IMG/VR virus record: IMGVR_UViG_3300049432_000082
Span: 1-21,909 of that record
Source: a virus
DNA length: 21,909 bases
Strand: one strand, 5' to 3'
Made by a program: the position numbers and the translations under genes. This document shows positions 6,538 through 13,026 of this stretch, piece after piece; position 1 is the stretch's first letter, and each line of letters begins with the position of its first letter. Below the pieces are notes generated by a model. The model made no database searches. It worked only from the letters and a program-made list of their open reading frames with translations, and was not told where the DNA came from.

Positions 6538-6759
6538 TCACGCGACCGCGCCGTTCGCCGCGTCGCTGGATGTGGTCGCGGCCTGCCGCGCGACGCGGAG
6601 CGCCTCAACGGCCGACTGGTCGAACAGGAACGCGCCGTTCGGTCCGGGTAGCTGTTGGGCCGGCGCCAACTTGCCGTCTGCGACGAGTCGGTGGACGGTA
6701 CGCAGGCTGACCCCGAGATGCTGGGCGACCTGTGGCGACGTGATGAGCATGAATCGCAC
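6538..6759 (-). CDS. Excisionase-like / MerR-type HTH DNA-binding protein
   Basis: The 73-residue protein is a winged helix-turn-helix of the HTH_17/excisionase type: ITSPQVAQHLGVSLRTVHRL (6-25) is the HTH, and DGKLAPAQQ with FLFDQSAVEAL (44-54) is the usual wing and closing helix. It starts at GTG 6759, or at ATG 6750 three codons later. A GAGG lies about 13 bases before the GTG, so the start is uncertain. It is divergent from the repressor gene across a 90-base gap, the place where cro sits in BPs-like phages. It may therefore serve as recombination directionality factor, as Cro-like switch, or as both. Confidence 0.75.
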   Translation of the reverse strand: MRFMLITSPQVAQHLGVSLRTVHRLVADGKLAPAQQLPGPNGAFLFDQSAVEALRVARQAATTSSDAANGAVA

Positions 6760-6849
6760 ACTGACACAATTGCCTCATGACGCGCAATGCGACGTCAGCG
6801 TGTCCCTGAACCATGGCGCACGTGCGTCACGCCGTGGCATCATCGGCGC
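6760..6849. promoter_or_regulatory. Divergent repressor / HTH control region with TGACG-type half-sites
   Basis: This 90-base gap must hold both divergent promoters. It contains an inverted pair TGACG (6778-6782) and CGTCA (6793-6797) ten bases apart. A third related half-site, GCGTCA, lies at 6824-6829 (TGACGC on the minus strand). These look like operator half-sites for the repressor or its divergent neighbour. I cannot place the -10 and -35 boxes with confidence. The repressor ATG has no Shine-Dalgarno sequence, so its message may be leaderless. Confidence 0.45.
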
Positions 6850-7218
6850 ATGGTGACCACGGCAGTGATCCCGTCGCTACGGCGACGGTGGCGGTTGAAG
6901 ATTGCGATGGAGGACGCGCGGTTCACGTCCTCGGAGATTGCGGCCGAGCTCGGCGTCAGCCGCGCCACGGTGAGCCGCTGGTTGGCCAGCGACACCGTGC
7001 CGGTCCGCTCGGCGTACCTCAAACAGTGGGCAGCGGCCTGCGGCGTAGATGAGACCTGGTTGATCTACGGCCCGGCCTGCGAATGCTGCGGGTCCATGCC
7101 CGGCCCGGTGTCGAATCCGCACCCCGTCGACGAGTTGCTCGAGGCCGAGGGTAGTCCCCGGTATTACTGGCCAGTCGGCACGCACACGCCCACCATCGCA
7201 GCCGCAGCCGCCGCGTGA
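6850..7218 (+). CDS. Probable immunity repressor, HTH protein with alanine-rich C-terminal tail
   Basis: The 122-residue protein begins at ATG 6850. Residues 25-46 form a clear helix-turn-helix (RFTSSEIAAELGVSRATVSR), followed by WLAS and a helical extension (SAYLKQWAAACGVDETWLIYG) typical of small Cro/CI-type repressors. No peptidase domain for RecA-driven self-cleavage is present. A CECC cluster (77-80) follows, then a flexible tail ending THTPTIAAAAAA. The final alanines resemble an ssrA-type tag read by ClpXP. It lies upstream of, and in the same direction as, the integrase and is divergent from the HTH gene, as the repressor does in BPs-like phages. The alternative is a plain lysogeny-control or Cro-like regulator. 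Confidence 0.75.
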   Translation: MVTTAVIPSLRRRWRLKIAMEDARFTSSEIAAELGVSRATVSRWLASDTVPVRSAYLKQWAAACGVDETWLIYGPACECCGSMPGPVSNPHPVDELLEAEGSPRYYWPVGTHTPTIAAAAAA

Positions 7219-7225
7219 AGACCGC

Positions 7226-7262
7226 GGTGATCACCACATGTGGTAAGGGTTCTGTCTCCACA
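7226..7262. other. Overlapping palindromes between repressor and integrase, candidate attP core or control site
   Basis: Two perfect palindromes overlap: GGTGATCACC (7226-7235) and ACCACATGTGGT (7233-7244). A further CCACA at 7258-7262 makes TGTGG-N14-CCACA with the second. This density of inverted repeats just upstream of a tyrosine integrase fits core-type recombinase sites. A regulatory site for int is equally possible. No second attachment copy is in the window to test this. Confidence 0.35.
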
Positions 7263-7313
7263 AGATCGCCCGATCCGCGCGGCGCAGGCCGGCTTCGTCG
7301 GCATCCTGCCGCG

Positions 7314-8183
7314 ATGAACGATCACGTCACCCTTGACCCCGGTACGTCCGATCCCGACCCGACGGCGCTGCTCGACCGATGGGCCATGGCGATGCTCGCC
7401 GAGGGCCTCTCCCCGGCGACGGTGAAGATGCGCACCGGGGCCGTCCGCCGCGCCGCTCTGGCCACGGGGGAGTCGCCATTGCGGTTCACCCCCGACGGGC
7501 TGCGGTACTGGTTCGCCGGGCACACGAACGCGAACACCCGCTCGACGTACTACGCGAGCATCGTCGCGTGGCAGGCGTGGCTCCTCGTCGAGGGCCTCAC
7601 GGCGACGAACCCGACCGCGGTTATCCGCCGCCCACGGCGCCCGCAGGGCCTCCCACGGCCGTGCTCGACCCTCGGCCTGCACCAGGTCCTCGCGTTGCCG
7701 CTGACGACCCGTACCCGGGCGATGGTGATCCTCGCGGCGTACGCGGGGCTGCGGGCGCACGAGATCGCGAAGTTCCACGCGGAGGACCTCGACGTCGTCG
7801 AGGGGACGCTGCGGGTCACGGGTAAGGGCGGCCATGAGGCGGTCCTGCCGGCGCACCCGGAGGTGGTCGCGCTCGCCGCGGTGATGCCGGCGGCGGGGCT
7901 GTGGTTCGAGTCGCCGAAGAACGTCGGGCACCCGGTGTGGCCGAACACGGTGACGAACTCGGTCGGGGCGGCGATGAAGCGCGCGCACGTGCGGGGCGGG
8001 GCGCACTCGTTGCGGCACTGGTTCGCGACGTTCCTGCTCTCGGGCGGGGCGAACCTGCGCGAGGTGCAGGACCTGCTGCGGCACGCGAGCGTGTCGACGA
8101 CGCAGATCTACACGTTGGTGTGCCCGGACGCGTTGCGGGCCGCGGTGCTGCGCCTGCCCGGGGCGGCCGGGCCCGGCCGATGA
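7314..8183 (+). CDS. int: Tyrosine integrase
   Basis: The 289-residue protein has a SAM-like core-binding domain (about 15-105) and a catalytic domain. All catalytic positions are seen: R147 in AYAGLRAHE, K171 in VTGKGGHE, H231 and R234 in HSLRHWF, H257 in LLRHAS and the nucleophile Y266 in STTQIY. It would integrate and, with the excisionase-like protein, excise the phage. The start used is ATG 7314, which has no good ribosome-binding site. A GTG at 7215 overlapping the repressor stop (GTGA) would add 33 residues of atypical composition. No N-terminal arm-binding domain is obvious in the short form. It lies 95 bases after the repressor in the same direction. Confidence 0.93.
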   Translation: MNDHVTLDPGTSDPDPTALLDRWAMAMLAEGLSPATVKMRTGAVRRAALATGESPLRFTPDGLRYWFAGHTNANTRSTYYASIVAWQAWLLVEGLTATNPTAVIRRPRRPQGLPRPCSTLGLHQVLALPLTTRTRAMVILAAYAGLRAHEIAKFHAEDLDVVEGTLRVTGKGGHEAVLPAHPEVVALAAVMPAAGLWFESPKNVGHPVWPNTVTNSVGAAMKRAHVRGGAHSLRHWFATFLLSGGANLREVQDLLRHASVSTTQIYTLVCPDALRAAVLRLPGAAGPGR

Positions 8184-8485: not shown

Positions 8486-8554
8486 ATTAAGGCACGCCGG
8501 AACGAGAAACGGAGGTGATGCGAAACGACCCGAGACGAAGCGGCCCTGTACCTG

Positions 8555-8632
8555 ATGGCCGCCAGCGTAGGCCTCCAGGCCTACACCATCTGGCGAGACC
8601 GGAAGCGCAGGGGACGTCACCGTAGAGGGTGA
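8555..8632 (+). CDS. Possible small membrane-like ORF with a misplaced start
   Basis: The frame from ATG 8555 gives 25 residues (MAASVGLQAYTIWRDRKR, then basic), which look like a short apolar helix with a basic end. The same frame is open back to 8519, with plausible coding sequence (TTRDEAALYL), but has no start there. A full-strength GGAGGTGATG lies at 8511-8520, with its ATG one base out of frame. Either the real gene begins at 8518 and the sequence has one extra base in the AAA at 8523-8525, or only the short form is made. The rest of the 8444-8717 gap holds the TGCATC repeats and a terminator. Confidence 0.25.
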   Translation: MAASVGLQAYTIWRDRKRRGRHRRG

Positions 8633-8636
8633 CTAA

Positions 8637-8669
8637 GGCCCCCTCCCCGAAGCAAGCGGGGAGGGGGCC
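8637..8669. terminator. Perfect 13-bp GC hairpin
   Basis: Arms 8637-8649 and 8657-8669 are perfectly complementary (GGCCCCCTCCCCG), with a 7-base loop AAGCAAG. No T-tract follows, as is common for actinobacterial terminators. It lies between the integrase gene group and the small membrane protein gene at 8718, so it probably ends the repressor-int transcript. Confidence 0.75.
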
Positions 8670-8717: not shown

Positions 8718-8867
8718 ATGCAGATCACCCAGGGGATCCAGGCCAGCGCGGCGACCGCGGTCGTGCTCGCGGGCGGGAGCCTGATCCGCCCGGTTCCGTG
8801 GCCGCTGTGGGCGCTGTGGGCGGGGCTGACGGTCCTGGCCGTGGTGGATGCCCGGCAGGAGGCGTGA
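8718..8867 (+). CDS. Small two-helix membrane protein (49 aa)
   Basis: ATG 8718 has an excellent ribosome-binding site (AGAGGAGG ending six bases upstream). The 49 residues hold two apolar stretches (about 8-22 and 28-44, the second with WPLWALWAGLTVLAVV) separated by LIRPVP. A hairpin across the membrane is likely. The stop overlaps the GTG of the next gene (GTGA). No function is recognised. Confidence 0.6.
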   Translation: MQITQGIQASAATAVVLAGGSLIRPVPWPLWALWAGLTVLAVVDARQEA

Positions 8868-9076
8868 ACGGGGGCGAGCCGGTCCGGCGTGGCCGGGGGC
8901 GGCCGCCCGTGGGTCCGGAGGTCCGCGGTCTGCGCCTCGACGCGGGGGACCTGGCGGAGATCGAGGCACTGGCGGAGGCGCGGGGGGTGACGAGGTCGGT
9001 GGTGATCCGCGAGCTCGTCGGGGAGGCCCTCGAGGCGCGGCGCAGGAAGGTGGCACGGGCTCGGCCGAACGGTTGA
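8864..9076 (+). CDS. Ribbon-helix-helix DNA-binding protein with basic N-terminal arm (70 aa)
   Basis: GTG 8864 overlaps the preceding stop (GTGA), with GGAGG just before it. The N-terminus GGEPVRRGRGRPPVGPEV has an AT-hook-like RGRP core. A ribbon-helix-helix follows: strand VRGLRLDAGD, helix LAEIEALAEARG and helix VTRSVVIRELVGEALEAR. It ends in a basic tail. It would act as a dimeric transcription regulator and could control the lysogeny genes around it. The frame is open further upstream, but those starts would run through the membrane protein gene. Confidence 0.72.
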   Translation: MNGGEPVRRGRGRPPVGPEVRGLRLDAGDLAEIEALAEARGVTRSVVIRELVGEALEARRRKVARARPNG

Positions 9077-9096
9077 GTGCAGGCACGTCCGGTCAG

Positions 9097-9116
9097 GGTG
9101 CAACCAGTGGTTCACC
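9097..9116. promoter_or_regulatory. Operator-like dyad upstream of the lipoprotein gene
   Basis: GGTG(C)AACCA (9097-9106), one central G, and TGGTTCACC (9108-9116) form nine-base inverted arms with a single unpaired C. The dyad sits in the 78-base gap between the ribbon-helix-helix gene and the lipoprotein gene, about 40 bases before the lipoprotein start. It may be the binding site of that regulator. No clear -10/-35 pair is seen. Confidence 0.4.
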
Positions 9117-9154
9117 CCGGCCGTCCTAGTGATCAGATTCCAGGGGGGAACACC

Positions 9155-9601
9155 ATGAAGCGCATCATCACCGCGGCCCTCGCCGCGGCCGCGATCGTCG
9201 GCCTGTCCGGCTGCGCGGCCGCGAAGACCGACCAGGCCGCCGCCGCACCCGAGACGAAGCCCGCAGCCGCGGCATGCGAGACGCCGTCGAAGGCGCTGCT
9301 CACCACGATCGGGTCCGTCCTCGACTCCGGGGTGAAGCCCGGCCGCGCCGCCGCGGTCCGCTCGAGCGAGTTCGAGAAGGCCTGGTTCGTCGCCGTGAAG
9401 CTGAAGGGCGAGAGCATGGCCGACTCCGACCCCGCCGTCTTCGTCACGAACGACCTCGAGGGCCCCGGGACCATGTACGCCGTCGGTGGGATGTCGCACG
9501 AGTTCTCCGACCTCGGTCACGGTGAGGACACCGACGCGAAGTTCGCACAGACCTCCGCCGGCTACGCCGAGGCGATCGCGTGCACGAAGGCCGCGTCGTG
9601 A
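9155..9601 (+). CDS. Phage-encoded lipoprotein
   Basis: ATG 9155 follows AGGGGGG by about 8 bases. The protein (148 aa) has a classical lipoprotein signal peptide: basic MKR, an apolar core and the lipobox LSGC with C20 as the lipidated cysteine. An Ala/Pro-rich linker (21-40) leads to a globular domain (41-143) that begins and ends with a cysteine (C41 and C143), suggesting a disulfide. It would sit on the outer face of the membrane. Lipoproteins made from prophages can block infection by related phages (for example Llp of phage T5), but that role here is inference. It is co-translated with the next membrane-anchored gene. Confidence 0.8.
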   Translation: MKRIITAALAAAAIVGLSGCAAAKTDQAAAAPETKPAAAACETPSKALLTTIGSVLDSGVKPGRAAAVRSSEFEKAWFVAVKLKGESMADSDPAVFVTNDLEGPGTMYAVGGMSHEFSDLGHGEDTDAKFAQTSAGYAEAIACTKAAS

Positions 9602-10221
9602 AGCGCCCGATCAGCCTCGGCGGGTTCACCGCCGCGGGGGTCCTCGTCGTAGCCATCATGGGCGGCGCCGTCGGCGGGGCCGTCGTGATGAGCGGGCAGG
9701 GCGCGGCGACTACCGCGCCGAGTTCGGTGACCCTGCATCAGGTCGCCGACGAGGTCACCGCCGAGCCGACTATGGCGCCCGTGGTGGACGAGGATCCGGC
9801 GCCCGCCGCCGATGTCGTCCAGTCCGCCCCGGCGCCCGTCATGGCGCCGAGCGGTGGTTCCGGGGAGACTGCCTCCGAGGCCGCGGACCGTGCGGCCGCT
9901 GAGGCCGACCGGGCGAGCAGCGCCGCGGACCGCGCGGAGGACACCACCGCGCCGAAGCCGGCGCCCGTGCAGCCGGCCCCGGCGCCCGTCGCGACCGAGG
10001 AGGACACCGTGGCCAAGCCCACGACCCCCGCTCCCGAGTGCGAGGCCGGGCAGACCAGAGGCGTCCCCGCCCGGCCCGGCGAGTACTCGATCACGTATGC
10101 GTGCCAGGGCGGGAAGTGGGTCGAGTCCGGGCGGACGCTGGTGCCGGACCGGTCGAAGCAGGCCCCCGCCCCGTCCGCGCCGGTGACCGAGGTCATCGTG
10201 GTACCCCCCGCGGCTGGTTGA
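9598..10221 (+). CDS. Membrane-anchored Pro/Ala-rich extracellular protein (207 aa)
   Basis: GTG 9598 overlaps the lipoprotein stop (GTGA). A single membrane segment (about 9-32, FTAAGVLVVAIMGGAVGGAVV) is followed by a long low-complexity region (35-145) of Pro, Ala, Glu and Asp, including a helical AADRAAAEADRASSAADRAED run. A small domain with C148 and C169 (ECEAGQTRG to YACQGGKWVESG) follows, then a Pro/Val tail. This resembles a stalk that spans the cell wall and carries a small disulfide-bonded tip. Its pairing with the lipoprotein suggests a joint surface function during lysogeny. Confidence 0.75.
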   Translation: MKRPISLGGFTAAGVLVVAIMGGAVGGAVVMSGQGAATTAPSSVTLHQVADEVTAEPTMAPVVDEDPAPAADVVQSAPAPVMAPSGGSGETASEAADRAAAEADRASSAADRAEDTTAPKPAPVQPAPAPVATEEDTVAKPTTPAPECEAGQTRGVPARPGEYSITYACQGGKWVESGRTLVPDRSKQAPAPSAPVTEVIVVPPAAG

Positions 10222-10241
10222 CCCTCCCGGGCATACGAATG

Positions 10242-10274
10242 GCGCCCCACCCGCCTCGGACGCGGATGGGGCGC
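10242..10274. terminator. Bidirectional terminator between convergent operons
   Basis: Arms 10242-10254 (GCGCCCCACCCGC) and 10262-10274 (GCGGATGGGGCGC) pair over 13 positions with one C:A mismatch, which becomes G:U in the minus transcript. On the plus strand it is followed by TGTCGTTGTT. It occupies the 80-base gap where the plus-strand lysogeny genes meet the minus-strand lysis genes. Confidence 0.8.
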
Positions 10275-10301
10275 TGTCGTTGTTCCCGTGGCTTCGCCGG
10301 G

Positions 10302-11973: not shown

Positions 11974-12129
11974 TCAGGGGCGGGCGCCGTTGCCCTCACC
12001 GCGGCGGCGGTGACACAGGCACAGGCACGGCTGCTCGCAGAACTTGCAGGTACGGCGGCACCGCCCGTGCAGGCCGTGCAGGCACGCCGTCGACAGGTAC
12101 GCGTGGGTGTCCTCGTACGGGTCCGTCAC
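11974..12129 (-). CDS. Small cysteine-rich zinc-finger-like protein (51 aa)
   Basis: GTG 12129 overlaps the stop of the collagen-like gene (GTGA). The 51 residues carry C16, C24, C28, C31, C35, C37, C39 and H40 in a pattern [27 protein letters not shown], which should bind one or two zinc ions. Very similar short Cys/His proteins are familiar from actinophages but have no known role. The tail is basic. It is the last gene before the terminator. Confidence 0.7.
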
Positions 12130-12686
12130 GGCGCGGGCGGTGGTGGTGCGGTGGTGCACGTCCACGGGTCCGTCGGGACCGCCGACGGCGAGCAGTACAC
12201 GGTCGTCGGGCTGGCGCCGTCGCGGCCGTCCTTGCCGTCCGCTCCCGGTTTCCCGTCCGCCCCCGCGGGGCCCGCGTCACCGTCACGCCCAGGCGGCCCC
12301 GGCACACCCTGCGGGCCCACCGCGCCGGGCAGCCCCGGGTCGCCCTGGGGACCGGGTGGGCCGGGCGCACCGTCGACACCCGGCGGGCCCTGAGGACCGC
12401 GGGGGCCAGTGGGACCGCTCAGCCCCACCGGGCCGCGTTCGCCGGGCGGGACGTTGATGACCGGCGCCGGCGCCGGTTTGATCCCCGCGCCCTTCAGCTG
12501 CTCGATGAGGCGCTCCGCGTAGGCGTCCTGGGTCGCGAACGCGTCCTCGAGCTTGTCGGCCCGCTCGGCGAGGCGGGACTGCCCCGCCGCGGCCCACACC
12601 GAGAACGCCGCAGCGAGGAACAACCCGCCGAGCACGACGCCCACCAGCACCCGCCAGTTCGGGCGGTGGGTCTGCTCAACGCTCAT
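12126..12686 (-). CDS. Membrane-anchored collagen-like protein (186 aa)
   Basis: ATG 12686 lies 11 bases inside the end of the preceding gene. The 186-residue protein has a short cytoplasmic start, one membrane helix (about 12-34), a coiled-coil-like segment (36-66), a Pro linker, and then 26 uninterrupted Gly-X-Y triplets (82-159) of collagen type. The last 27 residues carry two cysteines and a Pro run. Collagen repeats are common in tail fibres, where they trimerise, but fibres do not normally have a membrane anchor. The protein may therefore be displayed on the infected cell, or the N-terminal helix may serve another assembly role. Confidence 0.78.
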
Positions 12687-13026
12687 CGCCCCGGCCCTCC
12701 CGCTCGAGCTGCTCAACGTGCCTGGCGTAGCGGGCGTCGCCGGGGTTCGCGATCCGGGCGAGCTGCGACTCGAGCTCGGCGACCCGCGTGCGTGCGCGTT
12801 CCGCGTCGGCCTCCGCGACCCGGGCCCGCTCGTCCGCTCGCGACGACGCGGTCTCCTGCTGGCTGGCGAGCTGGCGCTTGAGTTCGTCGCGCTCCTGGCG
12901 CCACTCGTCACGCTCGACCTTGTGCTCGGCCTCGCGGGACGAGACGAACCGGAACATGTACCCGATCACCATCACCAGGGACCCGACGACGCCGAGGGAC
13001 GGGAGCAGGGTCGCGGCGTCGCCCAT
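12676..13026 (-). CDS. Membrane protein with coiled coil (116 aa)
   Basis: ATG 13026 is preceded by GGAGGAGGGCGAGG within about 25 bases. The protein has an N-terminal membrane helix (about 8-27, [18 protein letters not shown]) and then a long, highly charged coiled coil (30-98) rich in Arg, Glu and Ala ([19 protein letters not shown]). This is the topology of a single-pass inner-membrane protein with a cytoplasmic rod. It precedes and overlaps the collagen-like membrane protein gene, so the two probably act together. A class of holin or a lysis regulator is possible. I cannot decide. Confidence 0.7.

What the first reader, a model, noticed from the sequence alone, without database searches (positions are those of the whole stretch)
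8718..10221. Surface-protein module in the lysogeny region: membrane hairpin, RHH regulator, lipoprotein, wall-spanning stalk
Four genes in two coupled pairs lie between int and the lysis genes, on the same strand as the repressor, with a regulator and an operator-like dyad. The lipoprotein and the stalk protein would both face outward. Prophage-expressed genes in this position often block superinfection. I know of no described system with this pairing.
Basis: inference. Interest (0 to 1): 0.7.

Follow-up and report, generated by a model that had tools for sequence, protein, structure and literature searches.

The report
Prophage cassette with swappable surface protein
Next to its integrase, this bacterial virus carries a gene for a surface lipoprotein and a gene for a membrane-anchored stalk; in sister viruses the stalk is kept while the lipoprotein is swapped for unrelated proteins, one of which shares a domain with a protein known to keep a rival virus's DNA out, so this is probably an exchangeable anti-rival-virus shield.

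Summary
The four genes are real, but they are two independent units. Unit 1 is a membrane hairpin plus an RHH protein. It is absent from both sister phages (L002, L005), lies behind a strong RNA hairpin, and has a hairpin+HTH counterpart in Gordonia Getalongvirus. Unit 2 is a lipoprotein plus a stalk, behind a 99-bp block that contains the dyad. Both sisters keep this block although they lack an RHH gene, so the RHH protein is probably not the dyad's regulator.

Unit 2 is a mosaic cassette. The stalk is conserved (72-75% aa; 93% DNA between the sisters) while its partner gene is replaced: lipoprotein (window), the same leader on a coiled coil plus Rv1352/Rv1906c domain (L005), an unrelated TM protein (L002). 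The L005 domain is also that of Charlie gp32 (NF053833, phrog_17706), which blocks Che9c infection from the same int-lysis slot. The window lipoprotein itself has no characterised relative.

Best explanation: a prophage-expressed exclusion cassette with a constant scaffold and an exchangeable, specificity-giving surface protein (about 0.5). The slot and exported cargo in it are known; a constant stalk with swapped partners was not found described. New variant of a known kind.

The parts
7215..8183 (+). tyrosine integrase; upstream border of the cargo slot
   Evidence: Pfam Phage_integrase 75 bits; 86% identical to L002 int
8637..8669 (+). perfect 13-bp G+C-rich hairpin, probable terminator (no T-run) separating the int region from unit 1
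   Evidence: fold -33.4 kcal/mol, z -5.8, 0 of 200 shuffles as good; no T-tailed terminator found
8718..8867 (+). unit 1: 49-aa two-TM membrane hairpin
   Evidence: phrog_34830 1.3e-5; Gordonia Getalongvirus homologues 45-47% identity; absent in sister records
8864..9076 (+). unit 1: ribbon-helix-helix (CopG-type) DNA-binding protein, 4-nt overlap with the hairpin gene
   Evidence: RHH_1 28.8 bits, cut-off 20.5; no RHH_1 in the sister records G001, G002
9062..9160 (+). conserved 99-bp block upstream of the partner gene: probable promoter/regulatory region and RBS
   Evidence: 93% identical in L002, 89% over a longer stretch in L007, with the upstream genes unrelated and, for L002, the downstream gene too
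9090..9123 (+). extended imperfect inverted repeat (core AACCAGTGGTT), operator dyad or RNA hairpin
   Evidence: z -3.8 in the window, -2.9 in the sisters' version; single occurrence in the window
9155..9601 (+). unit 2, variable partner ('payload'): 148-aa lipoprotein, lipobox LSGC, mature alpha/beta domain with 2 further Cys
   Evidence: homologues in Microbacterium phages Gretchen gp56 and UtzChips gp55
9155..9273 (+). constant leader of the payload (signal peptide, lipobox, Ala-rich spacer), shared with L005 while the rest is swapped
   Evidence: blastn block to 9273; leader alignment score 139 against 35 +/- 6 shuffled, mature parts not above shuffles
9598..10221 (+). unit 2, constant scaffold ('stalk'): 207 aa, N-terminal TM, Pro/Ala-rich linker, 24-aa helix, C-terminal beta tip
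   Evidence: 72-75% identical in two sisters; codon-position pattern 37/26/67; model
10036..10143 (+). folded beta tip of the stalk (residues about 147-182, conserved Cys148 and Cys169)
   Evidence: pLDDT >90 in the A3-based model; Cys invariant in A3
10240..10275 (+). G+C-rich hairpin at the convergent junction with the lysis genes; probable terminator of unit 2
   Evidence: fold z -3.35 in the window, -3.7 in L005 at the same place

Best explanation
Unit 2 (9062-10275) is a prophage-expressed superinfection-exclusion cassette. Its own regulatory block drives two translationally coupled exported proteins. The first is a lipoprotein on the outer face of the cytoplasmic membrane; it is the specificity-giving part and is exchanged between related phages. 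The second is a conserved membrane-anchored scaffold that reaches into or through the wall with a small folded tip. In a lysogen the pair would interfere with genome entry of particular rival phages, and swapping the payload would change which rivals are excluded. Shown: gene structure, export signals, constant scaffold with exchanged partner, slot position, and the shared domain between the L005 partner and Charlie gp32. Inferred: expression in the lysogen, physical partnership of the two proteins, exclusion activity. Unit 1 (hairpin + RHH) is a separate small accessory unit inserted beside it.
For: Same slot and strand as lysogenically expressed defence genes of cluster N phages (PMC9262239, PMC6426606, PMC7542560). 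The partner gene of sister L005 carries NF053833 (5.3e-30) and matches phrog_17706 (4.5e-7). Charlie gp32, reported to exclude Che9c and probably block DNA injection, carries the same domain (4.8e-10, 39.6 bits against cut-off 25) and belongs to phrog_17706. Payload exchange around a constant leader and stalk is what an arms-race specificity module predicts. The stalk is under purifying selection. An unrelated lipoprotein sits alone in the same slot of the more distant prophage L003. The Streptococcus exclusion lipoprotein Ltp also lies directly beside int on the repressor strand (PMC3952083).
Against: The window's own lipoprotein matches no exclusion family and its low-confidence model has no significant PDB match. 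Charlie gp32 is reported to act alone, so a stalk is not generally needed. No sigma70-type promoter was found. No expression data. Only three phages with this cassette are known, two of them from one metagenome. The same slot also carries non-defence cargo (polymorphic toxins).
Confidence: 0.5

Rival explanations
1. Lysogenic conversion for the host, unrelated to other phages: the exported proteins alter the cell surface (adhesion, wall, nutrient or stress traits) and help the lysogen.
For: The slot also carries polymorphic toxin cassettes in M. abscessus prophages that are lysogenically expressed (PMC8092301). The Rv1352/Rv1906c domain is named after M. tuberculosis proteins, i.e. it also occurs in cellular genomes.
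Against: The only characterised phage relative of any payload, Charlie gp32, works in phage exclusion (PMC9262239). Replacement of the payload beside a constant scaffold fits an arms race better.
Confidence: 0.25
2. Spanin-like lysis pair: a lipoprotein plus a TM protein with an extended region, placed beside the endolysin genes, acting at lysis.
For: Lipoprotein + N-terminal TM coupled pair; adjacency to lysis genes; phrog_456 'Rz-like spanin' gives only a 0.17 signal-peptide hit.
Against: Opposite strand to, and converging on, the lysis genes with a hairpin between them; same strand as repressor and int; the payload is replaced by unrelated proteins, which an obligate lysis partner would hardly tolerate.
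Confidence: 0.06
3. Immunity lipoprotein left over from, or paired with, an exported polymorphic toxin.
For: Some immunity proteins in M. abscessus prophages are predicted lipoproteins in the same slot (PMC8092301).
Against: No WXG100 or toxin gene among the ORFs and family hits of this slot in the window, L002 or L005.
Confidence: 0.05
4. The first reader's single four-gene module in which the RHH protein regulates the surface pair through the dyad.
For: Contiguity on one strand; a dyad directly follows the RHH gene.
Against: Dyad and stalk persist in two sister phages that lack both unit-1 genes; the hairpin gene is coupled to an unrelated HTH gene in Gordonia phages.
Confidence: 0.1

Closest known systems
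Charlie gp32 heterotypic exclusion system (cluster N mycobacteriophages; phrog_17706, NF053833)
   Same: Exported protein encoded between lysis genes and int on the repressor strand; its domain is found in the payload of sister phage L005 from the same cassette.
   Different: Acts alone, no stalk gene; the window's payload lacks the domain.
Ltp-type superinfection-exclusion lipoproteins (Streptococcus phage TP-J34)
   Same: About 145-aa lipoprotein gene beside int, transcribed with the lysogeny module.
   Different: No Ltp family hit in Pfam for the window lipoprotein; no coupled stalk partner in the paper read.
Polymorphic toxin-immunity cassettes of M. abscessus prophages
   Same: Cargo in the same int-lysis slot, adjacent to attachment junctions, lysogenically expressed, with constant and variable parts.
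   Different: WXG100/type VII export and a toxin; none here.
Butters gp30/gp31, Sbash gp30/31, CarolAnn gp43/44
   Same: Two-gene prophage defence units in the central variable region or beside the repressor, with a membrane component.
   Different: Sensor plus multi-TM membrane protein, abortive-infection type; here both proteins are exported and single-anchored.
Gordonia Getalongvirus gp41-gp40 pair
   Same: Same hairpin family followed, with overlap, by a small DNA-binding gene between tail genes and int.
   Different: The DNA-binding partner is HTH, not RHH.

Membership tests
Charlie gp32-type exclusion proteins (NF053833 / phrog_17706) | Rv1352/Rv1906c domain above curated cut-off | tested here: not met
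   The window lipoprotein has no NF053833 hit; sister L005 payload 103.6 bits and Charlie gp32 39.6 bits pass the cut-off of 25
Charlie gp32-type exclusion proteins (NF053833 / phrog_17706) | Encoded between lysis genes and int on the repressor strand | tested here: met
Charlie gp32-type exclusion proteins (NF053833 / phrog_17706) | Prevents infection by a heterotypic phage | not testable with these tools
   needs plating assays
Ltp superinfection-exclusion lipoproteins | Lipoprotein signal with lipobox | tested here: met
   LSGC at residues 17-20
Ltp superinfection-exclusion lipoproteins | Ltp (host cell surface-exposed lipoprotein) domain | tested here: not met
   no such Pfam hit at E <= 1
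Spanins (Rz/Rz1) | Same transcription unit as the lysis genes | tested here: not met
   opposite strand, convergent
M. abscessus-type polymorphic toxin cassette | WXG100 toxin and partner genes | tested here: not met
   no such family hits for the module proteins
CopG/RHH DNA-binding proteins | RHH_1 domain above gathering score | tested here: met
   28.8 bits against 20.5
phrog_34830 membrane hairpin (Getalongvirus gp41) | sequence similarity over the whole protein and coupling to a DNA-binding gene | tested here: met
   45-47% identity, GIQAS and WAxWAGxTV motifs; the downstream gene is HTH there
Known anti-phage defence systems in PADLOC | any PADLOC model hit | tested here: not met
   none at E <= 0.1

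The most novel reading that the evidence does not exclude
A two-part, modular superinfection-exclusion apparatus of actinophages: a constant wall-reaching membrane scaffold shared by many specificities, and an interchangeable surface protein (sometimes exchanged just behind a constant lipoprotein leader) that decides which rival phage is blocked, so that phages re-target their shield by swapping one gene.
Probability: 0.28. Interest if true: 0.7.

Novelty: new variant of a known kind. Interest (0 to 1): 0.55.

Why it matters
Prophage surface exclusion is known mainly as single proteins with narrow, unpredictable targets. A cassette with a fixed scaffold and naturally swapped partner proteins would let one ask directly which part decides target specificity, using three natural payloads on one scaffold. 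It also turns a group of unannotated exported actinophage genes into testable candidates, and links the Rv1352/Rv1906c domain, named after M. tuberculosis proteins, to phage exclusion.

Tried and rejected
Direct homologues of the window lipoprotein or stalk: none in 50,697 phages, lipoprotein none in plasmids, none in GTDB genome contigs; in IMG/VR only the two sister contigs for the stalk and none for the lipoprotein. The stalk tip alone finds nothing. PDB sequence search empty for the lipoprotein and the L005 payload; Foldseek to PDB not significant for either model. The best BFVD structural neighbour of the lipoprotein, Carcharodon gp34 from the same cluster N slot (prob 0.96, TM 0.49, E 0.12), was not confirmed by sequence or profile, so it is only a lead resting on a single-sequence model. 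A tRNA-type attP in the repressor gene was looked for by eye and not established. No Rfam family in the window. Kin genomes cannot be drawn for a virus record. The L005 payload finds no further IMG/VR relatives and the L002 payload only a Microcystis phage protein.

Full report
The window is an IMG/VR virus contig (G000) of 72% GC. Early genes run left on the - strand, repressor and integrase right on the + strand, and structural then lysis genes come back on the - strand. The finding lies at the end of the + strand block, between int and the convergent lysis genes.

Observation. All four genes exist with 4-nt overlaps inside each pair. The 49-aa hairpin belongs to phrog_34830 and has 45-47% identical relatives in Gordonia Getalongvirus phages. 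The 70-aa protein is an RHH protein above the Pfam cut-off. The 148-aa protein has a clean lipobox (LSGC). The 207-aa protein has one N-terminal TM segment, a disordered Pro/Ala-rich region, a 24-residue helix and a small confident beta domain with two conserved cysteines.

Two units, not one. The closest relatives are two IMG/VR contigs from one metagenome, 3300048596_000027 (L002; int 86% identical) and 3300048596_000042 (L005/L007). DNA comparison of window and L002 gives a block over xis-repressor-int (6538-8161, 88%), a 99-bp block at 9062-9160 (93%), and the stalk (9603-10125, 78%), with nothing between. L007 matches at 9062-9273 (89%) and 9589-10125 (79%). Hairpin and RHH genes are absent from both sister records. 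A 13-bp perfect hairpin (z -5.8) separates unit 1 from the int region, and another hairpin closes unit 2 at the convergent junction, also in L005. Since the dyad, part of the 99-bp block, persists without the RHH gene, the RHH protein is probably not its regulator. In Getalongvirus the same hairpin gene is coupled to an unrelated HTH gene, so unit 1 is itself a known kind of pair with an exchanged DNA-binding partner.

Unit 2 is a cassette with a constant and a variable part. The stalk is 72-75% identical in protein between window and sisters and 92.6% identical in DNA between the two sisters, with changes concentrated in third codon positions. Its upstream, translationally coupled partner differs each time. 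Window: lipoprotein with a mature domain distantly related to Microbacterium phage Gretchen gp56 and UtzChips gp55, themselves near a serine integrase. L005: the same signal peptide and Ala-rich leader (score 139 against 35 +/- 6 shuffled), then a predicted coiled coil (by eye) and an Rv1352/Rv1906c domain (NF053833, 5.3e-30). L002: an unrelated TM-anchored protein of phrog_13160 (3e-19). The mature parts are not similar above shuffled controls for window/L005 and L002/L005 (45 and 141 of 300 shuffles as good); window/L002 shows a weak score (7 of 300 shuffles as good) that I read as shared low complexity. This is exchange of one gene, or of the part of a gene behind its leader, beside a fixed partner.

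The slot. In Charlie (cluster N) genes 31-33 lie between lysis genes and int on the repressor strand. Cluster N central genes are lysogenically expressed and give defence (PMC6426596, PMC9262239, PMC7542560). Charlie gp32, a predicted membrane protein, defends against Che9c and likely prevents DNA injection (PMC9262239; PMC6426606). M. abscessus phiGD21-1 has a polymorphic toxin cassette there (PMC8092301), Arib1 nothing, and the distant prophage L003 a lone unrelated lipoprotein. Streptococcus phage TP-J34 places its exclusion lipoprotein Ltp beside int (PMC3952083).

The link to function. Charlie gp32 carries NF053833 above its cut-off (39.6 bits, cut-off 25) and belongs to phrog_17706 (1.9e-70). 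The L005 partner hits both (103.6 bits; 4.5e-7), and the two proteins align at 7e-7 for the single comparison. So one natural occupant of this cassette is a relative of an experimentally characterised exclusion protein. This is the strongest functional evidence, and it concerns the sister, not the window's own lipoprotein.

Mechanism proposed. Shown: export signals, coupling, constant scaffold, exchanged partner, slot, shared domain in the sister. Inferred: lysogenic expression from 9062-9154, partnership of lipoprotein and scaffold, interference with rival DNA entry, specificity from the exchanged protein. Charlie gp32 works without a stalk, so the stalk's role (positioning, wall binding, or broadening) is open.

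Novelty. The RHH/hairpin unit, the slot and exported cargo in it are known. A constant scaffold with swapped payloads in this slot was not found in the family libraries, the phage collection or the papers searched; only three examples exist here, so the inference of modular exchange rests on a small sample.

Noticed in passing
window 6787-7218 and 7215-7316: Repressor ends in -IAAAAAA and overlaps int, as in integration-dependent immunity systems where the virion form of the repressor carries an ssrA-like tag (PMC8092301); L002 has a similar layout (-LSAAA). attP was not located.
   Followed up: partly
L019:3983-4376; L018, L020: Gordonia Getalongvirus phages carry the same hairpin gene overlapping a small HTH gene instead of an RHH gene: a constant hairpin with an exchanged DNA-binding partner.
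   Followed up: partly
L003:6315-6728: A more distant prophage (int 39% identical) has a lone, unrelated 137-aa lipoprotein in the same int-lysis slot, without a stalk.
   Followed up: partly
L022:5012-5679: Carcharodon (cluster N) gp34-gp33, an overlapping pair in the same slot; gp34 (phrog_16337, moron/membrane protein) is the best viral structural neighbour of the window lipoprotein, unconfirmed by sequence.
   Followed up: partly
L002:8757-9275: Directly behind the stalk L002 has a - strand ORF that looks by eye like an HNH endonuclease, where the window has the stalk's closing hairpin and lysis genes.
   Followed up: no
window 8523-8634: A possible tiny membrane peptide (..EAALYLMAASVGLQAYTIWRDRKRRGRHRRG) between int and the 8637-8669 hairpin, no clear start codon.
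   Followed up: no
window 12126-12911 (-): Collagen-like GPxGxx-repeat protein beside the tail genes.
   Followed up: no
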